A stretch of 64,000 bases of DNA. Source: Juglans regia (Eukaryota; Streptophyta; Magnoliopsida; Fagales; Juglandaceae). The notes beneath the pieces are model-generated. The model saw nothing but the letters and a program-made list of their open reading frames with translations, was not told the origin of the DNA and ran no database searches. Made by a program: the position numbers and the translations under genes. The DNA is taken from contig NC_049903.1 in the NCBI RefSeq assembly GCF_001411555.2, positions 20,565,234 through 20,629,233 of the forward strand. Direction: 5' to 3'. This document shows, in pieces, positions 3,402 through 54,672 of this stretch. Within the stretch, counting starts at the first letter, position 1. Each line of letters starts with the position of its first letter.

Positions 3402-4137
3402 AGAAGGTACTGAGGGATGATCATGGTTAGAAACTTTTGCATCATGTGCCTACTCATCCCTCAAATTTGGATAGGATAATAACAAGTTTTTGGTGGAGCT
3501 TCCGAACAAGGAAGGATTGAAATTTTATGCCGAGAGTATTTTGGTGTCGATAATTTGAAAAGTTATTAGTTAGTATTCGAGTATAGATATCATAGTCCCA
3601 CTGTGCTATCACAAATGACATATCATTAAAATTACTTTAAGGATATATATAAATGAATCTAATTTGAGTGAATAGTAAGTAGTCAAGACTTGTTCGTTTA
3701 ACTTTTATTCAAACATGAGTGGACCTCAAGTTTATCATCAAGCTATATGTTAAGTTCGCGAAACAACTTATGTATTATTCGAACTTGTTCATGAGGTATC
3801 TAATTTTGACGAAATATTTTTTTTTACATTATATATCATAACTTTATCAAAATTTTTAATAAATAATCTTTTATTTTTTGTGAATATCTTTATATAGTTG
3901 ATTTCTACATATATCAATTTCTATAGGCATAAATGCTTAAGCAGTTGCATGGTGTTCTTATTGTAAAATTAAAGATAATATTATAAAATATAAAATTATT
4001 CAAGCTTGTAAGAACTTATTAGAATTGAATTGAATTTTTTATATGAGTTAATGTATGATTTAATAATCCATCATAATTTTAGGACTTATTTAGACGCTGA
4101 AACCTATCTCAAGTGCTTTATTTAGTAACATAGTCGT
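3402..4137. other. AT-rich spacer
   Basis: No gene or defined repeat is seen. It ends at the outer edge of the Tat-like LTR element. Confidence 0.5.
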
Positions 4138-27776: not shown

Positions 27777-28384
27777 TAGGGATGTAAATTTAAACCGGTA
27801 AACTGGAAAACCAGCTCGGACTGGTTGGTCCGGAACCGGTTCCTATATTATGAAAACCGGTCGGTTCCGGTCTGGTTTCGGTTCCGTAGTTTTTGGGACC
27901 GGACCGGACCGGTTTAAAATATATATATATATAAATTAATTTTATATATTATACAAAATATTTATATATATATTTTATATATAATATATAATTATATATC
28001 ACATATGAAATAATTTCATATTATAATTTATAAATTATAACATAAAATGTTAATCTTAAATATGAGTATTTGTAATTTGTTTGATTATATGTTATTAATA
28101 TAAGTATATATAAGATAATATTATTATAATTTATAAAATAAAAGTTTAATGTAAAGATAAAAATTTAATTGATCATATGCTTTAAACATAATATATATAT
28201 TAAATTATTAATAACATTTTATCATAAGAAATAATGTTTTATTATATTTTTTTTACATTTTAAAAAAACTGGAAAACCGAATGTACTGATTTATGAGGAT
28301 AACCGGAACGTAATCGATTTTGAAAAATACAAAACCGATACATATCAATTCGGTCATAAATTTTATCAAAAACCGGACCTGTTA
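27777..28384. mobile_element. hAT-type MITE (CCGGT family), about 608 bp
   Basis: The left end is TAGGGATGTAAATTTAAACCGG and the right arm carries AACCGGACCTGTTA. The arms have inverted CCGGTTCCGGTC-type motifs around an AT-rich core that resembles the core of the 7044 element in inverse order. The flanks GGCATGTT and CGCATGCT match at 6 of 8 positions. Confidence 0.65.
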
Positions 28385-28597
28385 CGCATGCTATCGTATC
28401 TTTTTTTTCTTTTTTCTCCTTTTTTGTCTTACTTTTTTCTTCCCTTCTCCCCGTGCTCTCCCCTCCTCCCCCCTTACCCTTACGAAGGCCACTCTCCTCA
28501 CTGCCAGCCGACAATCGTGACCCTCCTAGTGCCGCCACTTTCCTCCACTCTCCTCACCACCGCCGCCGACAATCGTGACCCTCCCAGTGCAGCCGTC
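28385..28597. repeat. Pyrimidine-rich stretch with a roughly 60-bp tandem duplication
   Basis: The block CCACTCTCCTCAC..GCCGACAATCGTGACCCTCC occurs twice, around 28487-28527 and 28547-28585. The element at 28598 inserted directly after the second copy. Confidence 0.6.
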
Positions 28598-28943
28598 TGT
28601 AACACACCTGATAGTAGGTGTTTGGATGACTAGAAAATATACAAAAAAATTACTCACTTCGAGAGGAGCACCTCCATTGAAGAAAAGAAGAAAATGATAA
28701 AAGTAGAAAAAATAACATTTGTATTAACTTTTTTATATCCTAAACCCTAGAGCTCTTGACTCATATATAAAGGAGATGACCCTACATGGGCCCAAGCTAA
28801 CACTAAAAACATACAAGGAAATAAAACTAAGGGCCAATGCCCATTAGCTATCTTGTAGTCCAAATACATGCTGAATTGAAATTGTAAATGAAATTGGCCC
28901 AAAGCCAATAGCCCATGTCCTTGAATCTTCGGGGACTGTGACA
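28598..28943 (-). repeat. 3' LTR of the Pack-type element
   Basis: 346 bp, TG...CA termini, with the 5-bp target duplication CCGTC directly before it. The captured reading frame runs into this LTR and stops at 28747. Confidence 0.88.
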
Positions 28944-29898
28944 AACCATCCTCCATAGAAGCACCTTGTCCACAAGGTGCGGTTTGGCTGCCACGCTTCC
29001 TTTGTAACTGGAAATTATTAACTTCTAGCTCATCATCAGTAATCCAATCAAAATTTCCATCTTTTACACCATGTCCTGCAAGGCTCATGTAAATAGCTTT
29101 GAAAGAAACAACATATGGGGAGGACATTTGGTCAAAAACCACTTTTGCAAACTCATCCTTGCCATCTTCCATAAACTTGGCAGCCATATATGCTTCTTGA
29201 AGCCTTCCAACATCATTTGCTAAGAAATTCTCAACATGCTTCAAAATTGTCTCCACTACAGCTACAATTTTCATGGAAATAGCAAATAAAACCATCCCTG
29301 TTCCAATTCTCTCAAAGCCTGGCGCAACCTTTCTGTTCATAGTAGCCCCTTGCTTGGTAAAGAAAGTTGATGAATGTGCATACAAAATAGCATATGCCAA
29401 GCTTGTCACCTTCACTAGAGCAAGCCTAAGAACTGCTTTTGCCTCCGCAATGCCATCACGCAAATAATATGACCCACTTCCGTTTGGCATTACACGAAGG
29501 GCATCCTGTAGTGGTGCCAAATATTTCAAAGAGATGATGGTGCAGTGTAGTTGGAGCAATTCAAATTTCAAGGAATTCTGCAATATTGCAAGTGGCCTCG
29601 CCATTGTTGACACAATCACCGAGAGCTCAAATAAGTAGTCATGAGCAATGACATCCAAAGACAGCTTGCTTAGTATCAACATCACAAATTTTGTAGCTAT
29701 CTCCATTAGATTAGAATCATCTGAAAAGGTAGATATTTGAGAAGCCAACACTTTCATGCCTCCAAACTCATACAATCTCTTGTCAATTGGCAGACAATCT
29801 TGAAGACGACGGGACACCTCAACAAGCACTTTCTTTATAGCCAACACATTCCCTTCTATCTCGATCATCTCGTTGGATGGGGCAGCGCAGGCTGGCAA
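28747..29898 (-). pseudogene. Captured chimera part 2: KH-domain, neurochondrin and PPR-like fragments
   Basis: On the - strand the frame after a TAG stop (29901-29899) reads LPACAAPSNEMIEIEGNVLA, then VEVSRRLQDCLP. This is the middle of a plant KH-domain RNA-binding protein ([13 protein letters not shown] just before the stop belongs to the same piece). Next is GGMKVLASQISTF, LSLDVIAHDYLFELSVIV, LQDALRVMPNGSGSYYLRDG, typical of the neurochondrin family. Then comes an unidentified piece (VTSLAYAILYAHSSTFF), and a PPR-like motif (VVFDQMSSPYVVSFKAIY). About 380 codons stay open to a stop inside the LTR at 28747. Each piece is far shorter than its parent, so a working product of any parent function is unlikely. 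The names come from motif recognition only. Confidence 0.7.
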
Positions 29899-30720
29899 CT
29901 AGTCGGTCAAAATCCTAATCTCGCAGCCACTCTCTTTCCTAATCTTCACCAGTTCATCAATAATCTCTCCCAATTTCTCTTGACAAGCCAGATTCCAAAA
30001 GTACCACACTCCAAACAACAAGCACTTGAAGATCAAACCCAGGGCACGCCTCATTGGCATTTTCACAAATACCTGAGGTACCCTTATTGCCTTTTTCATG
30101 TGAAGCACGAAGGCAACATCAGTTCCTCCGTACAATCTCATAGCAACACCAGATGCAAGTTTGAAAAGCAGATGGCTAGATATCATCCCAGCTGCCCCTA
30201 AGACTGCAATATTAATCAATTTCTTACACATTTTTGTCTCTTCTTCAGCCTTGAGATCATACGTGAGGCAGAACACACCGAAGCATTCGGACTTGTTCTT
30301 GGGGTCCTCAACTTGCTCTATGACTGGAGCTTTAACTGCACATATAGTGGTTATTGTCTGATCTACCTCGCCTCTGTTGGCCCAGATCCTAGCAGCCATA
30401 CCGACAAAATCAGAGGATGTAGCTTCGAGAACCAAATGAGAAGCCCGACATGGTGGTTTATCTCCCTCTCTACTGTTGGGTTTAGTATTTGAAAATGGAG
30501 AAGCGGCCGCAGATGACGATGATGATGAAAATGTTGTTCCTCCGAATATAGATGGGGTGGAACTCGGTGCGGCTATAGATGATCTGAAGGCGTATAAACC
30601 TGGACTTGCTGATGGAACTGTTGTTTTGAAAGGTGTTGAACCCGATGCGGAGGTTGCTCCCGCAAATGGCATTGCTCCGAACAGAGGTGAGGCAACAGTG
30701 GGTGTCACGGACGCTGACAT
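29899..30720 (-). pseudogene. Captured chimera part 1: FG-nucleoporin-like, NADP-malate dehydrogenase and KH-domain fragments
   Basis: From ATG 30720 on the - strand, residues 1-95 are Ser/Ala/Pro-rich with [16 protein letters not shown] and [14 protein letters not shown], like an FG nucleoporin. Residues 125-190 read [52 protein letters not shown], matching the N-terminal part of mature chloroplast NADP-malate dehydrogenase through its nucleotide-binding GxAGxI loop. A piece of unknown source follows ([17 protein letters not shown]). The last residues ([14 protein letters not shown]) start the KH fragment. The TAG at 29901-29899 is the only break between this and the next open stretch, which is in the same frame. 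Confidence 0.7.
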
Positions 30721-30981
30721 TGTTCCGAAAGGGATAGAACTGGGACTGGATTTGGGAATGGAATATAATGATCGTGCTGGTATTATCGTTTTTGCGGAAT
30801 GGTTGCTTTTCCGTAGTTGGGAGCTTGTGAATAAACAAATGGTGATGATTCCTCCAGGGTCAAAATTCCAAATATGAGAATCTGACCTTGAAGCTTGGGT
30901 TTGAATTTTCCAAATGGTGGTGAAGGAGAGAATCTTGAGAACAGATCTCTCATCCGCTTGACCTTGTTGTCTAGAAATTAT

Positions 30982-31233
30982 TCATTGATTCCCATTTTTG
31001 CTTTTTGCTTTGAATTTTCGGTAGTTCAAAATTTGTCCGTCATCAACCTCCATCGAATGTTTGGTTTGGAGGGACTGATTTTTTTGGGACAAGGAATCCA
31101 TTGTTGCTTGTTCTTCGTCTTTTTGTAGAGTATCGAGTTGGCTTTTCAGATTTGAGAATTCTTCATTCAAGTTGTTCCGAAAATCTTCAAGATTGTTCTT
31201 GACATTTTTAACTATCTGCAAAATCACACCCAA
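30982..31233 (-). CDS. Gag-like leader ORF of the Pack-type element (83 aa)
   Basis: This is an open frame between the primer site and the captured genes, reading QIVKNVKNNLEDFRNNLNE, FSNLKSQLDTLQKDEEQ. It is a short coiled coil of the sort found at the start of some gypsy gag proteins. It may be the only part left of the parent element. Function is not shown. Confidence 0.35.
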   Translation of the reverse strand: MGVILQIVKNVKNNLEDFRNNLNEEFSNLKSQLDTLQKDEEQATMDSLSQKNQSLQTKHSMEVDDGQILNYRKFKAKSKNGNQ

Positions 31234-31349
31234 ACGTTGTTATGATTGTTCGACTTGGTCTTTGATGTTGAGCAAGGATGGAATAATTTTTTCTATTTCC
31301 ATGGATTGATGCCAGCCGATCCAAGAAAAGACTGGCTCTAGATACCACT

Positions 31350-31695
31350 TGTAACATACCTGATAGTAGGTGTTTGGATGACTAGAAAATATACAAGAAA
31401 ATTACTCACTTCGAGGGGAGCACCTCCATTGAAAAAAAGAAGAAGATGATAAAAGTAGAAAAAATAACATTTGTATTAACTTTTTTATATCCTAAACCCT
31501 AGAGCTCTTGACTCATATATAAAGGAGATAACCCTACATGGGCCCAAGCTAACACTAAAAACATACAAGGAAATAAAACTAAGGGCCAATGCCCATTAGC
31601 TATCTTGTAGTCTAAATTCATGCTAAATTGAAATTGTAAATGAAACTGGCCTCAAGCCCATAGCCCATGTCCTTGAATCTTCGGGGACTGTGACA
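31350..31695 (-). repeat. 5' LTR of the Pack-type element
   Basis: 346 bp, TG...CA termini, about 96% identical to 28598-28943, followed by the CCGTC target duplication at 31696-31700. The primer-binding site abuts it at 31329-31348. Confidence 0.88.
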
Positions 31696-31700
31696 CCGTC

Positions 31701-32640
31701 TTTCTGGCGTCAACCCAATACCGTCACCCACAACCTTAAATTACGGTATATGATGTTGAGTTGTGCAATGCATTTTAAATCAATTTTTGATGCATGAAAA
31801 ATTTAACTGGGATTTGGATGTTGAGAAGAGTGAGAAGGGGGCCGAGAATTTTGTCTTTGAACTTGGATCCCTGTTGAATGTTGGTAGACTAATTGATGGG
31901 TATGTAGTGGAAATTGCACATGATTGAAATCTTCTGTACTTGGTAGACTCTAATCCAGTTCTTTCCACAAGTAATTTATTTTCTAGGACTTGAAATCACC
32001 TTGAACTTTGTAATTTATGTGTTAAAGGCTTCATGTGTCTCTAAGCTAGAAAGCTGTATCCAAGGCAATCGGCACTGAATGTGTAAAACTCTACTGTGTA
32101 AAAATGCAATTTTTTCCAGCCAAATAGAAAATTTAAAGGAAAAACAAAAAAAGCAATGAAGCAACGGAAACCAGAATGGAGAGAGAGAGAGAGAGTTACC
32201 TACAAAGAAGACGGGAACCAGAGAATGATAGAGAGAGAGAGAGAGAGAGAGAAAGTTGTGAAACGGACGCAAGGAAGATGAGAGGCATGGACACAAGGAA
32301 GACGGGATGGCATGTACAGTGCCTTCACCTTTCAGTCTTTTGCCACATCAGTTTGTGGATCCCTATGTGGGATCCCTGTATGCAGCTCCCATTTTCTAAA
32401 CTGAAAAATATTTGTATCAGTCTACTATTTATCACACACTCAATATACTTAGTGTATTGAGTTAAAAAAAAAAAATTGAATACATGATATATGGAGAGTG
32501 TAAGCTGATGCATAGAATTATTCTTTCTAAACATGCTCCCAAGTCCCCACAAATAACCCAACCCGTTTATTTTAAACTCGTCAAAATAACCAACCAAAAT
32601 GTTTCGGTCCTAAAAGCCCATAATAAACCCCTCTCCGTCG
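31701..32640. other. Spacer between the Pack-type element and the RNase H gene
   Basis: No gene is supported. Two GA microsatellites lie at about 32178-32196 and 32230-32253. The short ORFs over them are low complexity. Confidence 0.5.
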
Positions 32641-43952: not shown

Positions 43953-45060
43953 ATGGCTGATTCCATCAACTCCAATGTCAATCAAAACACAAATCCAAAC
44001 TCAAATATTCTTGATCCATCCCAACCAAACAACCCTTATTTTATTGGCTCCAATGACAGTTCTGGAGCCCTTCTTGTCACCAAAATGCTTGATTCAAGCA
44101 GTTGTCATTCTTAGGCATGTTCAATGAAAAGAGCTATTTGCATAAAAAATAAACTTGGGTTTGTTGATGGGAGCATTTGTGAACCATATGAGGCTGATAG
44201 TCAATTGATGGATCATTGGCTTTGATGCAATGAATCACTTGGTTGCAAAACACTATGTCCATTGACATCAAGAGCAGCAGCACCCTTTATGCTTAGATTG
44301 CTCACCAACTATGGAAGGAACTTGAACAACGACTTGCCCAACAAAATGCTCCCAGGATGTATGAAGTAAAGCAAGGTATTGCTACAATAATGCAAAACCA
44401 AGACACTGTAAGTATGTATTACTCTAAGTTAAAGACTCTGTTGGATGAATTGATGAACTATGAATCTATTCCTAATTGCACATGTGGGGGTTTGAAAACA
44501 ATAGTGGTTAACCAAGAAAGAGACTGGGTAGTGAAGTTTCTTATGGGTTTAAATGACACATACAAAGCCTTTAAGTCTCAGATCCTTCTAATCAAACATT
44601 TTCCTAGTCTAAATGAAGTGTACTCCATAATACAACAAGAAGAAAAGAGGTGACATATTTCTAAAGACACTTCAGTTAGTGATTCCATGGCTATGATACC
44701 AACTGCTAGAGATGTGGGAAGGCAGAATATCACACCTCAAAGAAAATATTATTGCACCTTTTGTAAAGTGCTTGGACATTCCTTAGAAAGATGCTTTAAA
44801 GCTAATCCTGAAAAACCATTGTGCAGCCATTACATAATGCCTGGCCATGTTGGAGAAAAGTGCTTCAAACTTCATGGGACGTGTAGACCATCAGTTGTCA
44901 ATCAAGTCACTACCCTTATGACATCTGGACAAGAGAAAATCAATGACAACCAAGTAGCACTCACTCGAGCAATATTCACAGTTGATTGCCTTGCTCAATT
45001 CACAACCCAGTCATTCTCACACACCTCCACTTAATCAAGTCCATTCCCTCAGTCATTCTG
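43953..45060 (+). pseudogene. Copia gag with zinc knuckle, frameshifted
   Basis: ATG 43953 begins MADSINSNVNQN. A stop interrupts at about 44112. Open stretches at 44357-44653 (YEVKQGIATIMQNQDTVSMY, FLMGLNDTYKAFKSQIL) and 44687-45034 (YYCTFCKVLGHSLERCFK, a CCHC knuckle, and CSHYIMPGHVGEKCFK, a second one) are the UBN2-type gag of copia elements. Confidence 0.75.
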
Positions 45061-45129
45061 AATCTGACATGTCAAAGCTATCTGGTATCTCACTTTGTCT
45101 CTCAGCTTGTAGCATAAACACACACAACA

Positions 45130-46986
45130 CTTTTGATACACCTTGGATAATAGACATAGGGGCGACAACCACATAGTCTACTCAACCTCCCTTTTCACTA
45201 CCATCAAAAGTGTTGCTACATATTCTATAGCTCTTCCAAATTGTGAAACTGTTAGTGTTTCTCATGTTGGGACAATGAAGATATCAAAATAATTGACTCG
45301 CATGATGTGCTTTGTGTTCCATCATTTTCCTTTAATCTCATATTTGCTAGGAAACTTAGTCAAAAATAAGATGTTGTCTTATTTTTCTACCTTAAGGACC
45401 TTTTAACTTGGAAAACGACTGGAATGGGTGAAATGAGGAATGGCTTGTATCACTTATTGAGGAATGAAGTTTCCCCTACAGCTTTAGTTGAAGCTCTATC
45501 ATCTCTAACCACCAACTCAGCCATTTCTGCTTCTGTTATCAACAATCAAGAAGATTTTTTCCCGTGAAACTATGGACTTGGACACCTCTCTGATTCTAGG
45601 ACGAGCTTGATTAGCAAAGATGGCATTTTTTATTTTGATCTTACTTCCATACCTTGCTCAGTTTTCCTTTTAGCAAAATTACATAAGCTTCCTTTTCCTG
45701 TTAGCCTTCATAAAATAGAAAGATGTTTTGATTTAGTCCACTGTGATCTTTAGGGGCCTTGTAATGAGATTAGTCATGATGGATCAAGATACTTTTTGAG
45801 TATAGTTGATGATTTCAGTTGTTGTACCTGGGTATATATGTTAAAACTAAAATTTGATGCAACTGGAGCTTTACAATAATTTTGTGCCATGATTGAAACC
45901 CAATTTGACTCCAAAATTAAAGTGATTAGAAGTGATAATGGAAGGGAATTTGACATGAAATATTTTTATTCAAAAAGAGGCATAATCCATCAGGAAACTT
46001 GTGTTGAAACACCTCAGCAAAATGTTATTGTAGAAAGGAAACACCAACACATCTTGAATGTAGCTAAGGCCCTAAAGTTTCAAAGTAAAATTCCAATGAG
46101 ATATTGGAATGATTGCATTATCACTGCAATGTACCTCATAAACAGAACCCCCTCACCATTGCTTAAAAACAAGACTCCTTTTGAGCTCCTTTTTAAGACC
46201 AAACATGTTTACTCTCATCTTAGGGCATTCAGGTGCTTGGCCTTTGCCTCCACTCTGGTCAATAACAGGCACAAGTTTGATCCTAGAGTTAGGAAGTGTG
46301 TGTTCTTGGGTTATCCTTTTGGGGTTAAAAGTTATAAGCTACTGGATCTAGAGACAAAAAGAGTCTTCATCTCTAGAAATGTAATCTTCCATGAGAAGAT
46401 TTTTCCATACAAAACTAAGACTACAACCACTCCACATGACCTGCCAAGTCCAACTATATTATCCTTCCCCCAACCATTGGATACTGCTCTTGACCACACT
46501 ATTGAGTTATTTCACCTTGAACTTGAACCAGATGTCGATATAGAGAATGCAAAAAACACTTCAAACACACAAAATTCACCAGAACCTCTTGGAGAAGAGA
46601 CACATGCCAGTTCCACCAGTCCTCACATGCCTAGAAGGTCCACTAGAGAGAAGCATGCACCACCTTACTTGTTGGACTTCATTTGTCAACAAGCATTCTC
46701 ACTCCCCCATTCACAAAAGTTAAACAAGAAGAAAGGATCAAGACTTTCAGGTAATGCCTATCCTCTTGATGTTACTCTCTCTTATCATAAACTGTCCAGC
46801 ATACACAAAGCCTTTGTTGCTTCAATCACAAAGCAAATAGAACCTAACACATATGCACAAGCTGTCAAAACTATTGGATGGTGCAAGGTAATGCAAGCTG
46901 AAATAGAGGCTTTAGAGATGAATGACACTTGGACTGTAGTTGATTTGCCTCATGGCAAGGAGGCTATTGGGTGCAAATGGGTTTAA
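45130..46986 (+). pseudogene. Copia protease remnant, integrase and start of RT
   Basis: WIIDIGATTT at about 45148 is the protease site, with the usual DTGA read as DIGA. After a broken pre-integrase zinc region, the integrase has CDL (45740), SDNGREFD and a VERKHQHIL Glu motif, so the D, D, E positions remain. ORF 45889-46986 (365 aa) covers the catalytic core end, the C-terminal GYPFGVKSYKLLDLETK motif, the linker, and the RT start (MQAEIEALEMNDTWTVVDLP). It stops at the Trp-rich KWV. Confidence 0.78.
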
Positions 46987-46999
46987 GTAAAATGCAGAT

Positions 47000-48476
47000 G
47001 GAAGTGTTGAGAGGTATGAGGCATGGTTAGTGCTAAAGAGATACACACAACAGGAGGGGTTGGATTACCATGAGACTTTCTCTCCTGCAGCAAAGTTAGT
47101 AATAGTGAGAACACTGCTTGTTGTAGTAGTTGTTAGAGGGTGGAATTTGCACCAATTGGATGTGAACAATGCATTCCTCCATGGTGATTTGGATGAGAAA
47201 GTTTATATTGAACTTCCACCAGAATATGTTGATTGTAATTGTGCATAAGTTTGCAAACTTCATAAGAGTTTGTATGGATTAAAATAGGCATCGAGGCAAT
47301 GGTATGTTAAGCTCTCGGATTTCATTGTTCAAAAGGGTTTCAAACAGTCAAAAGCAGATTATAGTCTATTTACAAGGTTAGTGGGAGAGTCCGTTATATC
47401 TATACATGTCTATGCGGATGATCTTATTATAACAAGTAATGACATGGACATTTTTCATTCTAGCAAATCTTCCCTGCATGACAGATTTAAGATAAAGGAC
47501 TTTGGTACTTTGAAGTACTTTCTTGGCTTAGAAGTGACAAGATCAGAAAAGGGGATTTATGTATGTCAGAAAATATGCATTGGACATATTACTTGACTCG
47601 GGAACCATTGGAGCAGCACCTACTGAGATACCCCTAGATCAAAATGGCAAGTTGCCCAAAGATCAAGGTGCTCTGCTTGAGGATCCCTTTATTTACAAAA
47701 GACTTATTGGGAGGCTTCTTTACCTCACCATCACCATACTAGATTTAGCATATTCAGTCCAATTGCTTAGCCAATTCATGCAAGCTCCTAAGGTCCCACA
47801 CTTAAATGCTGCTCATAAGGTGCTGAGGAATATAAAGAGGACTCCAGGCCAAGGATTGTTGTATTCTTCACAGTCAAACCTACAACTTGAGGTGTACTAT
47901 GATTTGGATTGGGGGGCATGCCCAGATACACGAAGGTCTGTGATAGGCTACTGTGCCTTTTTTGGTCCTTCCCTAGTGTCTTGAAAATCTAAGAAACGAA
48001 ACACCATCTCTAGGTCCTCAGTTGAAACTGAATATAGGGCCATGGCAAGTGCTTGCTGTGAATTAACTTGGTTAAGGTTTTTACTTCAAGACATAATAGT
48101 AGATCATCGTCAAGCAGTTGTGTTATATTGTGACAACAAGACTGCATTACACATAACTGTAAATCCAGTGTTCCATGAACAGACTACACACATAGAACTC
48201 GATTGTCATTTGGTCAGTGATAAAATCCAAGAAGGAAGTGTCATTACTAAGCATGTAAGTAGTGGATCACAAGTTGCAGATATTCTGACTAAGGCACTGG
48301 GATCTAACAGCCTCTACACACACTTGCACAAGATGGAAGCAGAAAACATATACTCTCCATCTTGTGGGGGGCTGTTGAAAATACAAAAGAAAATGCAAGA
48401 TGAATGCCACCAACATAACCGTGACTCATCTAAATTGGATAGCCAACAAGTCCAAGATGACTTAGAAGAAAAATGA
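47000..48476 (+). pseudogene. Copia RT and RNase H
   Basis: Open stretches at 47030-47248 ([36 protein letters not shown]), 47381-47596 (VYADDLIITS, the intact catalytic box) and 47559-47984 (LLYLTITILDLAYSVQLLS) are RT. 48042-48476 is RNase H (ACCELTWLRFLL, YCDNKTALHI, VADILTKALG). Stops and at least one frameshift separate them. Confidence 0.78.
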
Positions 48477-52445: not shown

Positions 52446-52633
52446 GGGCCCATCTATTAGCCCAAATATGATTGAGACAAAGATCCAATGAACCCACAGC
52501 CCAACACACAAACCATACGAAACTACCCAACGTACTATAAAGTGCCACTCGAAAGTCGAAACCTAGTTTGCACCCATAAACCCTAGTGTCCCTCACCCCA
52601 ATATTCGCTTTCATTTCCACACACTGAGCACCA
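52446..52633 (+). promoter_or_regulatory. RPL4 promoter: site II-like motifs, TATA box and telo box
   Basis: Site II-like GGCCCA or AGCCCA lies at 52447-52452, 52459-52464 and 52498-52503. TATAAAG lies at 52536-52542. The telo box AAACCCTAG lies at 52578-52586, just upstream of the ATG (52634). Site II plus telo box is the known signature of plant ribosomal-protein promoters linked to growth and cell division. Confidence 0.75.
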
Positions 52634-54672
52634 ATGGCTGCAGCCGCCGCACGCCCTCTCGTCACCGTTCAATCACATGATGGCGCCGAATCAACCGACA
52701 ACGTTCACCTGCCGGACGTTATGAGGGCCTCGATCCGACCTGACATCGTCAACTTCGTCCACGCCAACATATCCAAGAACAAACGGCAGCCGTACGCCGT
52801 ATCAAAGCGCGCCGGCCACCAGACCTCCGCAGAGTCCTGGGGAACCGGACGCGCAGTTTCCCGTATACCCCGTGTCCCCGGCGGTGGGACCCACCGCGCC
52901 GGCCAGGGTGCTTTTGGTAACATGTGCCGTGGCGGCCGCATGTTCGCCCCCACGAAGATCTGGCGCCGCTGGCACCGCAAGGTTAATGTCAACCTCAAGC
53001 GCTACGCCGTTGTTTCGGCCATAGCCGCATCCGCCGTCCCCTCCCTAGTTCTTGCCCGTGGACACCGGATCGAGTCGGTTCCCGAGTTGCCCCTGGTCAT
53101 CAGCGACTCAGCCGAGAGCGTGGAGAAGACTTCGGCGGCTCTCAAGGTTCTGAAAGACATTGGTGCTCACCCCGATGCCGAAAAGGCTAAGGACAGCCAC
53201 TCGATCCGTCCAGGCAAGGGTAAAATGCGAAACCGCCGTTACATCAATCGCAAGGGCCCACTGATTGTCTACGGAACTGAGGGGGCGAAGCTCGTGAAAG
53301 CGTTCAGGAACATCCCCGGCGTCGATATCGTGAACGTGGAGAGGCTGAACCTTCTGAAGCTGGCTCCCGGTGGTCACCTCGGGAGGTTTGTGATCTGGAC
53401 CAAGTCTGCATTCGAGAAGCTGGACTCGATCTACGGGTCATTCGAAAAGCCTTCGGAGAAGAAGAAGGGGTATGTGCTGCCGAGGTCGAAGATGGTGAAC
53501 GCTGACCTGTCGAGGATTATCAACTCGGACGAGGTGCAGTCCGTGGTGAAGCCGATCAAGAGGGAGGTTAAGAGGGCGCCAATGAAGAAAAACCCACTGA
53601 AGAATCTCAACACCTTGCTGAAGCTGAACCCCTACGCCAAGACCGCCAGGCGGATGGCTCTTCTGGCCGAGGCAGAACGCGTTAAGGCCAAGAAGGAGAA
53701 GCTTGACAAGAAGAGAAAGCAAATCACTAAGGTTTGCCACTTTCATGCTAATTTCCTTCTCTTTCTTATTATAGCTTCATATACTATAATGCTCTATAAA
53801 TGAGGTGGGATTTTGCATTGCTTGCTTCTAACCATTGCATTGCGTTTCGACCAAACAATGGAATAGACATAAGCAACCTAGGGCCGTTCTTAAAACAGAC
53901 ATATAGAAAGCATTATTTGTAACGGTAAGTGATTATAGTTTTATTTGGTATTTGGAAAAATAACTTTTGTCTGCCCATGTAATATAATGCTCTAGTATTT
54001 GCTGGGTACCTCTGGTGCCATATACAACAACTCCAGGGAAAGAGTTAGCCACGTCTGACCATGATTCTAAAAGGACTAGTTAATTTGAAGCTTTCCTAGG
54101 ATCATAAAATTTCCTAGATTTTCATGATTTCATCCTAAAAAAAAAAAATCGTAGAATTACCAATGGTTTCACCAAGTAAGTAGTCAAAGTGGGATTGAAC
54201 TGTCCAGACTACGCATATAACTCGCACACTCAATGTGAATTCTTTTTCCCAATGTGGGATTGTGTTACAATTACCTAACCAAGCGCTGTTATTGAAAACT
54301 TAATAGGTTTCCACAATCCGTTTGCTTTTTTTCTGTCCTCTCAGTTGTTTTAGGTCATCTGTGTGCATGAGCCCAATGTTACAGGTTTGATTTCCCCAGG
54401 GATTGTTGTGCTAGTCTTCTGGGGGTTTAGATTCGAGGAGTCCTAAAGGCTCTGTTGTGGGTGGTTCCCCGTCATTAAAAAATTGTAATGCCATTGGTGA
54501 TTTCAGCAAGTTATTAATGGACATTTTTGTGTCACCTTGTTTCTTTTGGGTTTTTCAGGACGAGGCTTCTGCAATTCAGGCTGCAGGGAAAGCATGGTAC
54601 AAGACAATGATATCAGATAGTGATTACACCGAGTTTGAGAACTTCACTAAGTGGCTAGGAGTCTCTCAGTAA
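52634..54672 (+). CDS. RPL4: 60S ribosomal protein L4 (uL4), 2 exons
   Basis: Exons are 52634-53731 and 54559-54672, with a GT-AG intron of 827 bp in phase 0. The product has 403 aa plus stop, close to the plant family's usual 404-407. uL4 binds 23S/25S rRNA, and its internal loop lines the peptide exit tunnel. The start reads [14 protein letters not shown]. Residues 40-110 hold the loop ([40 protein letters not shown]), residues 205-225 hold [10 protein letters not shown], and the eukaryotic extension 290-403 is Lys-rich ([29 protein letters not shown]) and ends [12 protein letters not shown]. The coding exon is much more GC-rich than its surroundings. No disruption is seen. The upstream motifs fit a ribosomal-protein gene. 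Confidence 0.97.

What the first reader, a model, noticed from the sequence alone, without database searches (positions are those of the whole stretch)
28598..31695. LTR retrotransposon packed with fragments of at least four unrelated host genes
Seen directly: matching 346-bp LTRs, a perfect CCGTC target duplication, an iMet-type primer site, and an interior with no recognised retroviral enzymes. By motif recognition the interior contains FG-nucleoporin-like, chloroplast NADP-malate dehydrogenase, KH-domain, neurochondrin and PPR-like pieces, all in one orientation. Most reported plant gene capture is by MULEs and Helitrons. LTR elements carrying several gene fragments (the maize Bs1 type) are rare. 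The inference is that this is a transduplicating, non-autonomous LTR element that may make chimeric transcripts.
Basis: partly seen in the sequence, partly recalled or inferred. Interest (0 to 1): 0.88.

Follow-up and report, generated by a model that had tools for sequence, protein, structure and literature searches.

The report
Walnut jumping element collecting host-gene fragments
A walnut LTR retrotransposon carries spliced fragments of about five unrelated plant genes joined in one reading frame, and related copies in the same genome carry other host-gene pieces, which suggests a natural machine for shuffling genes.

Summary
Window 28598-31695 is a complete, non-autonomous LTR element on the minus strand: 346-bp LTRs (333/346 identical), TSD CCGTC, no retroviral enzyme found. 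The PPR claim is not supported. The neurochondrin piece is four parent exon parts joined at splice junctions, three introns missing; KH and malate dehydrogenase pieces also cross parental exon boundaries: spliced mRNA was captured. The identified coding pieces are sense and in one frame with 3 stops in 802 codons (0 of 5000 frame-randomised versions do as well). Beyond the finding: related copies share LTRs, leader and 3' end but carry different cargo. Nine of 21 loci (eight separate insertions) have perfect 5-bp TSDs, two very young; sense frames of sister loci match 14 Pfam families above curated cut-off, seven of them in TSD-bearing copies. Copies also share cargo modules, suggesting recombination. 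Best mechanism: template switching onto host mRNAs during reverse transcription in trans. Bs1-like, but family-wide. Expression was not testable; no autonomous partner was found.

The parts
31350..31695 (-). 5' LTR (in element sense)
   Evidence: 346 bp, 333/346 identical to the other LTR; 40 matches scored of 172 candidates in the genome
28598..28943 (-). 3' LTR (in element sense)
28593..28597 (.). target-site duplication CCGTC, left copy
31696..31700 (.). target-site duplication CCGTC, right copy
31328..31348 (-). primer-binding-site-like sequence TGGTATCTAGAGCC (initiator-Met type, recalled)
   Evidence: read directly; similar sequence at the same place in most sister LTR pairs
30758..31349 (-). 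family leader with short coiled-coil-like ORF (ATG at 31302) and family 5' module; no gag domain found by Pfam
   Evidence: part of it (sense 347-620) found in 44 of 67 held loci, which overlap one another and include this copy; 31077-30428 shared with other loci at 86-90%; Pfam
30489..30757 (-). FG-nucleoporin (NUP62-like) coding piece, native frame
   Evidence: 86% identical to locus L049 (C16) 1501-1769, inside a long FG-rich frame that starts with ATG
30428..30494 (-). sequence around the start codon of the same FG gene (upstream part plus ATG), placed after the FG piece, so order is reversed; 6-nt overlap at the joint; not in the native frame here
   Evidence: 90% identical to L049 895-961
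30340..30427 (-). unassigned piece, open in the same frame
30142..30339 (-). NADP-malate dehydrogenase piece (residues 54-119 of J. regia protein P0023, 82%)
   Evidence: crosses parental exon edges at about residues 85 and 112 (tblastn extents)
29980..30141 (-). unassigned piece shared with the C1 sister locus (92%)
29776..29979 (-). KH-domain piece (HEN4-like), one in-frame TAG at 29899-29901
29445..29779 (-). neurochondrin piece: four parent exon parts joined at splice junctions
29245..29451 (-). NPF5.10 (PTR2/NRT1 family) transporter piece with an internal 43-residue deletion relative to the pecan protein
29006..29244 (-).
   Evidence: no PPR in Pfam; shared with L009, L011, L012, L017, L046
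28944..29005 (-). conserved 3' end next to the LTR (polypurine-tract region, recalled label)
   Evidence: similar sequence in 31 of 67 held loci, which overlap one another and include this copy
28747..31302 (-). one reading frame from ATG into the 3' LTR, about 850 codons, stops at 31240-31242 (TAA), 30982-30984 (TGA), 29899-29901 (TAG)

Best explanation
This is one copy of a non-autonomous LTR retrotransposon family of walnut that has repeatedly captured pieces of spliced host mRNAs. Shown: LTRs, TSDs, young insertions, cargo from about five genes in this copy with introns missing in the three where it can be tested, different cargo in sister copies, cargo modules shared between copies. Inferred: the element RNA is packaged and copied by reverse transcriptase supplied in trans by an autonomous relative; during minus-strand synthesis the enzyme switches to co-packaged host mRNAs and back, or between RNAs of two family members, at short homologies; copies whose fusion frame stays open are preferentially propagated.
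For: Candidate parents in the same genome: neurochondrin C8 (parent parts 201-262, 1664-1770, 1918-2014, 3976-4049 joined at gt-ag junctions within 1-2 nt, 92-93.5% identity), KH C13 and a second copy C16, NADP-MDH C7 and a second copy C12, NPF C8, FG nucleoporin C16. The two FG-gene pieces lie in reversed order with a 6-nt overlap TTTCAA at the joint, as template switching can give. Sister elements: 9 of 21 examined loci have perfect 5-bp TSDs, 8 independent insertions; LTR K2P 0.006 in two. Different cargo in sense frames. L009, L011, L012 and a C1 locus share or extend the same spliced pieces. Antisense control: 10 chosen of 25 listed antisense ORFs gave one sub-threshold Pfam match (E 0.013) and no other. 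Frame: 0 of 5000 frame-randomised versions have 3 stops or fewer.
Against: No autonomous partner was found, but the search was partial: a motif scan of the 67 held loci matched only L040, which lists ORFs of 18 loci, also shows a gypsy RT-like ORF in L023 that the scan missed. Both lie on the strand opposite to the family sense (labels by eye). L016 holds gypsy-like ORFs in an insert that its duplicate L014 lacks. No TSD was found at 12 of 21 loci, L009 and L017 among them. No expression data. Pieces at 30340-30427, 29980-30141 and 29006-29244 have no known parent. L011 and L012 lack the usual leader. The NPF and FG pieces lie within single open stretches of the parents and do not test intron loss. 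Recent changes in the neurochondrin piece look neutral.
Confidence: 0.92

Rival explanations
1. Host sequence was brought in at the DNA level (Helitron, Pack-MULE or nested insertion), and the LTRs only frame it.
For: In maize, Helitrons (1194) and other DNA transposons (462) account for more gene-fragment captures than LTR elements (PMC2774510, passages).
Against: Introns are missing at splice sites in neurochondrin, and exon boundaries are crossed in KH and MDH; Pack-MULEs hold exons and introns (PMC4717578, passages); identified coding pieces are sense and in one frame; sister copies have the same framing with other cargo.
Confidence: 0.03
2. Independent processed retrocopies (LINE-type) of several mRNAs were inserted one after another into an LTR element.
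For: LINE-type retroposition occurs in dicots (PMC4838847, abstract and passages).
Against: No poly(A) tails or internal target duplications were noticed on reading the sequence (no dedicated scan was run); pieces are internal parts of mRNAs joined directly, sense and in frame.
Confidence: 0.03
3. Cargo is mostly reshuffled among family members by recombination or lost by deletion, and fresh captures from mRNA were few and old.
For: This copy looks like a join at 29779 of an L009-like 3' half (97% inside) and a C1-like 5' half (92%); the neurochondrin piece is shared by four copies.
Against: Fourteen Pfam families above cut-off in sister loci, seven in TSD-bearing copies, ask for several separate captures, though Pfam families are not a count of genes. 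Both processes can be true together.
Confidence: 0.3

Closest known systems
Bs1 of maize
   Same: LTR element with pieces of several host genes, exons only, fused into a chimeric gene (PMC13317346, PMC4717578, PMC7264820, passages only)
   Different: Bs1 has three host genes. Here about five candidate parents are found for one copy, and sister copies carry other genes, which the passages read do not describe for Bs1.
Gene-fragment-bearing LTR elements of maize, rice and sorghum
   Different: The maize survey identified, under its conditions, no single LTR element with fragments of more than one standard nuclear gene (PMC2774510).
TRIM elements with captured exons (soybean GmaRetroS15)
   Same: Non-autonomous LTR element with spliced host exons (PMC4717578, passages)
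   Different: One parent gene in the passage read; no multi-gene reading frame described there.
Pack-MULEs and gene-carrying Helitrons
   Same: Multi-gene cargo and exon shuffling (PMC3544724 passages)
   Different: DNA-level capture; Pack-MULEs keep introns. Introns are absent here.

Membership tests
LTR retrotransposon (non-autonomous) | paired direct LTRs with TG..CA ends | tested here: met
   333/346
LTR retrotransposon (non-autonomous) | short target-site duplication | tested here: met
   CCGTC; 9 of 21 family loci, 8 independent insertions
LTR retrotransposon (non-autonomous) | primer-binding site next to 5' LTR and purine-rich stretch before 3' LTR | tested here: inconclusive
   TGGTATCTAGAGCC read directly and similar in sisters; the match to tRNA-iMet is recalled, no tRNA was compared
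LTR retrotransposon (non-autonomous) | no gag-pol enzymes of its own | tested here: met
   no RT, integrase, protease or RNase H match in Pfam scans of the three sense frames of 10 elements at E<=0.01
LTR retrotransposon (non-autonomous) | mobilised by an identified autonomous partner | tested here: inconclusive
   none found in a partial look at 67 held loci; the genome was not searched for it
Bs1-type host-gene transduction | several unrelated host genes inside one LTR element | tested here: met
   five candidate parents located
Bs1-type host-gene transduction | exons only, introns lost | tested here: met
   neurochondrin at DNA level; KH at DNA level against the C16 copy; MDH by tblastn extents
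Bs1-type host-gene transduction | chimeric gene transcribed and translated | not testable with these tools
   no expression data; this copy has three stops
Bs1-type host-gene transduction | sequence homology to Bs1 itself | not tested
   no comparison with Bs1 was made
Pack-MULE / Helitron | capture of genomic DNA including introns | tested here: not met
   introns absent
Pack-MULE / Helitron | terminal inverted repeats or Helitron ends | tested here: inconclusive
   one search reports two inverted-repeat pairs of 20-21 nt in 28000-32500, neither at the element ends; Helitron ends were not sought

The most novel reading that the evidence does not exclude
The family is a standing exon-shuffling engine. 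A compact LTR chassis (LTRs, a coiled-coil-like leader ORF, a family core module and a 3' end) repeatedly takes up internal pieces of spliced host mRNAs, trades them between members, and selection at the level of propagation (for example escape from nonsense-mediated decay, or a need for a leader fusion protein) keeps in-frame fusions, so that dozens of different open chimeric frames of several hundred residues are seeded across one plant genome.
Probability: 0.4. Interest if true: 0.88.

Novelty: new variant of a known kind. Interest (0 to 1): 0.78.

Why it matters
Capture of several host genes by one LTR element appears rare: the maize survey of 425 gene-bearing LTR elements identified none with more than one nuclear gene (PMC2774510, passages). 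A partly young family that does it repeatedly, with candidate parents, sister copies and joints visible in one sequenced tree crop, makes the capture mechanism (where and at what homology reverse transcriptase switches templates) directly measurable. It also lets one ask whether new proteins arise this way and whether an open frame is selected during propagation.

Tried and rejected
Considered and rejected: chance repeat or pseudogene cluster; DNA-level capture; one continuous host gene (candidate parents on C16, C7/C12, C13/C16 and C8); PPR origin of 29006-29244. Antisense control: of 25 antisense ORFs of 85 residues or more listed, 10 were scanned (near-duplicates and others skipped); one sub-threshold match (Tocopherol_cycl, E 0.013), no other. 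PDB searches gave nothing useful for the neurochondrin/NPF and KH stretches.

Selection on cargo: NG86 on up to 111 neurochondrin codons gives parent-element dN/dS 0.40-0.52; this copy against L009 has 0 synonymous and 5 nonsynonymous changes, L011 against L012 has 1 and 14. Recent changes look neutral; constraint on the element itself is not shown. In-frame test by three-frame Pfam scans at E<=0.01 over 10 elements: by my count 5 of 7 adjacent domain pairs share a frame (this copy neurochondrin-PTR2, L010, L011, L017, L025 yes; L009 trypsin-neurochondrin and L013 MAP70-kinase no; L012 left out as a relative of L011; single-domain elements L014 and L018 give no pair). Three of the five rest on a domain below its curated cut-off (PTR2, Nuc_sug_transp, PPR_2), so it is suggestive only. 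L009 and L012 show frameshifts inside neurochondrin. A cruder control with random cuts was inconclusive for most elements (2 to 130 of 400 controls reach the observed ORF), though the longest sense ORF exceeds the longest antisense ORF in 10 of 10.

Not done: parents of the L013 (MAP70), L017 (DXS) and L010 cargo; some searches were unanswered (not completed).

Full report
What is there. The stretch 28598-31695 is a complete LTR element. The two 346-bp LTRs are 333/346 identical with no gap, and CCGTC lies on both sides. At rates recalled from rice and Arabidopsis the K2P of 0.039 would mean about 1.5-2.8 million years; a tree may be slower, so older. The element reads on the minus strand: its 5' LTR is 31695-31350, followed by a primer-site-like sequence.

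What the interior is. PDB and a 5.8-billion-protein search identify NADP-malate dehydrogenase, a HEN4-like KH protein, neurochondrin and an NPF5.10 transporter. Pfam alone is weak: only neurochondrin passes its cut-off. The best named relatives are pecan (Carya) proteins. The FG piece has a candidate parent in C16, a long FG-rich frame starting MSGFSFGS; I call it NUP62 from recall. The PPR-like piece has no PPR match and is a module shared by sister elements.

The host. The window lies in G000:C3. The lengths of contigs C7 and C13 equal the contig lengths listed for two Juglans regia proteins, so the host is very probably common walnut.

RNA-level capture. The neurochondrin parent on C8 spans about 10 kb. 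The element's 335-nt piece equals four exon parts of that gene, joined where the parent has gt-ag introns of about 1.40 kb, 147 bp and 1.96 kb, within 1-2 nt of ambiguity, at 92-93.5% identity. L009, L011 and L012 carry more of the same spliced gene, starting at an exon start; L011 and L012 run on into the next exon. The KH piece covers residues 185-243 in one run where parent exon matches change at about residue 215, and at DNA level it splits at an intron of about 0.23 kb in the C16 copy. A sister locus on C1 carries KH residues 184-478 in one frame, across three such boundaries. The malate dehydrogenase piece covers residues 54-119 in one run where parent exon matches change at about 85 and 112 (protein-level extents only). 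NPF and FG pieces do not test this.

Joints. The FG part is followed by the region around the start codon of the same gene, so gene order is reversed, with a 6-nt overlap TTTCAA; this second piece is not in its native frame. Reverse transcriptase copying toward the 5' end of one mRNA and jumping to an inner place of another would give this; that step is inference. The neurochondrin-NPF joint of this copy and L009 lies at ATTGnGG, which L011 has at both edges of a further stretch of about 330 bp that includes an HSP70 piece. At 29779 this copy changes from similarity to the C1 locus (92%) to similarity to L009 (97% inside), so it looks like a join of two family members.

The frame. The FG, malate dehydrogenase, KH, neurochondrin and NPF pieces are sense and in native frame within one frame from an ATG at 31302 into the 3' LTR, broken by three stops. 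Stops inside per sense frame are 50, 46 and 3, antisense 51, 37 and 20. With a random frame at each of nine joints that I set, 0 of 5000 versions have 3 stops or fewer, median 25. The LTR divergence predicts about 1.6 new stops since insertion, so the frame may have been open when it inserted. This is inference, not proof of a protein; tests for selection and family-wide frame keeping were neutral or only suggestive (see Tried and rejected).

The family. The LTR finds 40 scored matches among 172 candidates. Of 21 loci examined, 9 have perfect 5-bp TSDs, 8 separate insertions because L014 and L016 share flanks and TSD; 12 show none. LTR K2P among the nine runs from 0.006 (L010, L013) to 0.088. 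Cargo differs. In some searches sense ORFs from 18 loci were scanned, chosen by length; 9 had no match at E<=0.05. With, matches above curated cut-off are Trypsin_2, Ubiquitin_4, neurochondrin, HSP70, MAP70, protein kinase, Per1, cofilin/ADF, DXP synthase, DUF7899, E1-E2 ATPase, cation ATPase N, KH and EF-hand: 14 families. Seven are in TSD-bearing copies (Ubiquitin_4, neurochondrin, HSP70, MAP70, kinase, Per1, EF-hand); the others are in L009, L017, L026, L031 and L041, for which no TSD is shown. A query with the L014 ORF matches a core segment (about residues 22-136) at 66 other loci by my count of the 84 listed matches, on all 16 large contigs; 27 of them lie in open frames of 300 residues or more, 11 of 500 or more. 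The weakest of these matches (E near 1e-3) may be chance or a parent family. Per1 in L014 is contiguous where candidate parents on C2 and C10 are split.

Literature. The 2026 review of gene capture (PMC13317346, passages) gives Bs1 with three host genes as one of the first examples. The maize survey (PMC2774510, passages) identified no LTR element with more than one nuclear gene among 425. Searches naming Juglans or Carya found nothing on this (no papers; three papers, listing only), nor did I see such a family in the listings. The library holds open-licence papers only; one primary Bs1 paper was not held and the others were not looked up.

Judgement. Membership in LTR retrotransposons is firm; a Bs1-like way of working is well supported; what looks new is that one family does it repeatedly and with many genes. 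Expression, protein, selection on the frame and the autonomous partner are open.

Noticed in passing
L014 1106-2032 (minus), residues about 22-136, and 66 other loci: A family core segment of unknown origin with a recurring LLDxLPLRVxFxPFDRGxGR-like motif sits in long open frames at many loci; Pfam gave no match for it in L014.
   Followed up: partly
L010 (C6:24135300-24141300): A very young copy (LTR K2P 0.006) has part of its leader region repeated three times, the last at the start of a 791-residue open frame.
   Followed up: no
L011 and L012: These two related copies (94% identical) lack the family leader and carry another open frame after the primer site.
   Followed up: partly
L014 and L016 (C4): The same insertion with the same TSD GAAGG occurs twice on C4; one copy has a further insertion inside. 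Looks like a segmental or assembly duplicate.
   Followed up: no
G000 C8:474518-477369 and C8:981147-990987: The NPF and neurochondrin parents lie only 0.5 Mb apart on C8, and their pecan homologues both bear chromosome-8 gene numbers; perhaps coincidence.
   Followed up: no
window 52628-53800 (+): A 391-residue open frame looks like ribosomal protein L4 (recalled, not searched); it may be a host gene or retrocopy.
   Followed up: no
window 44297-48473 (+): Fragments that look like a decayed copia element (recalled motifs, ORFs).
   Followed up: no
G000 C6:20220277-20220821: A stretch matching malate dehydrogenase residues 175-373 lies about 1.1 kb from an LTR match at C6:20221950-20222268: a different part of the same host gene.
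   Followed up: no
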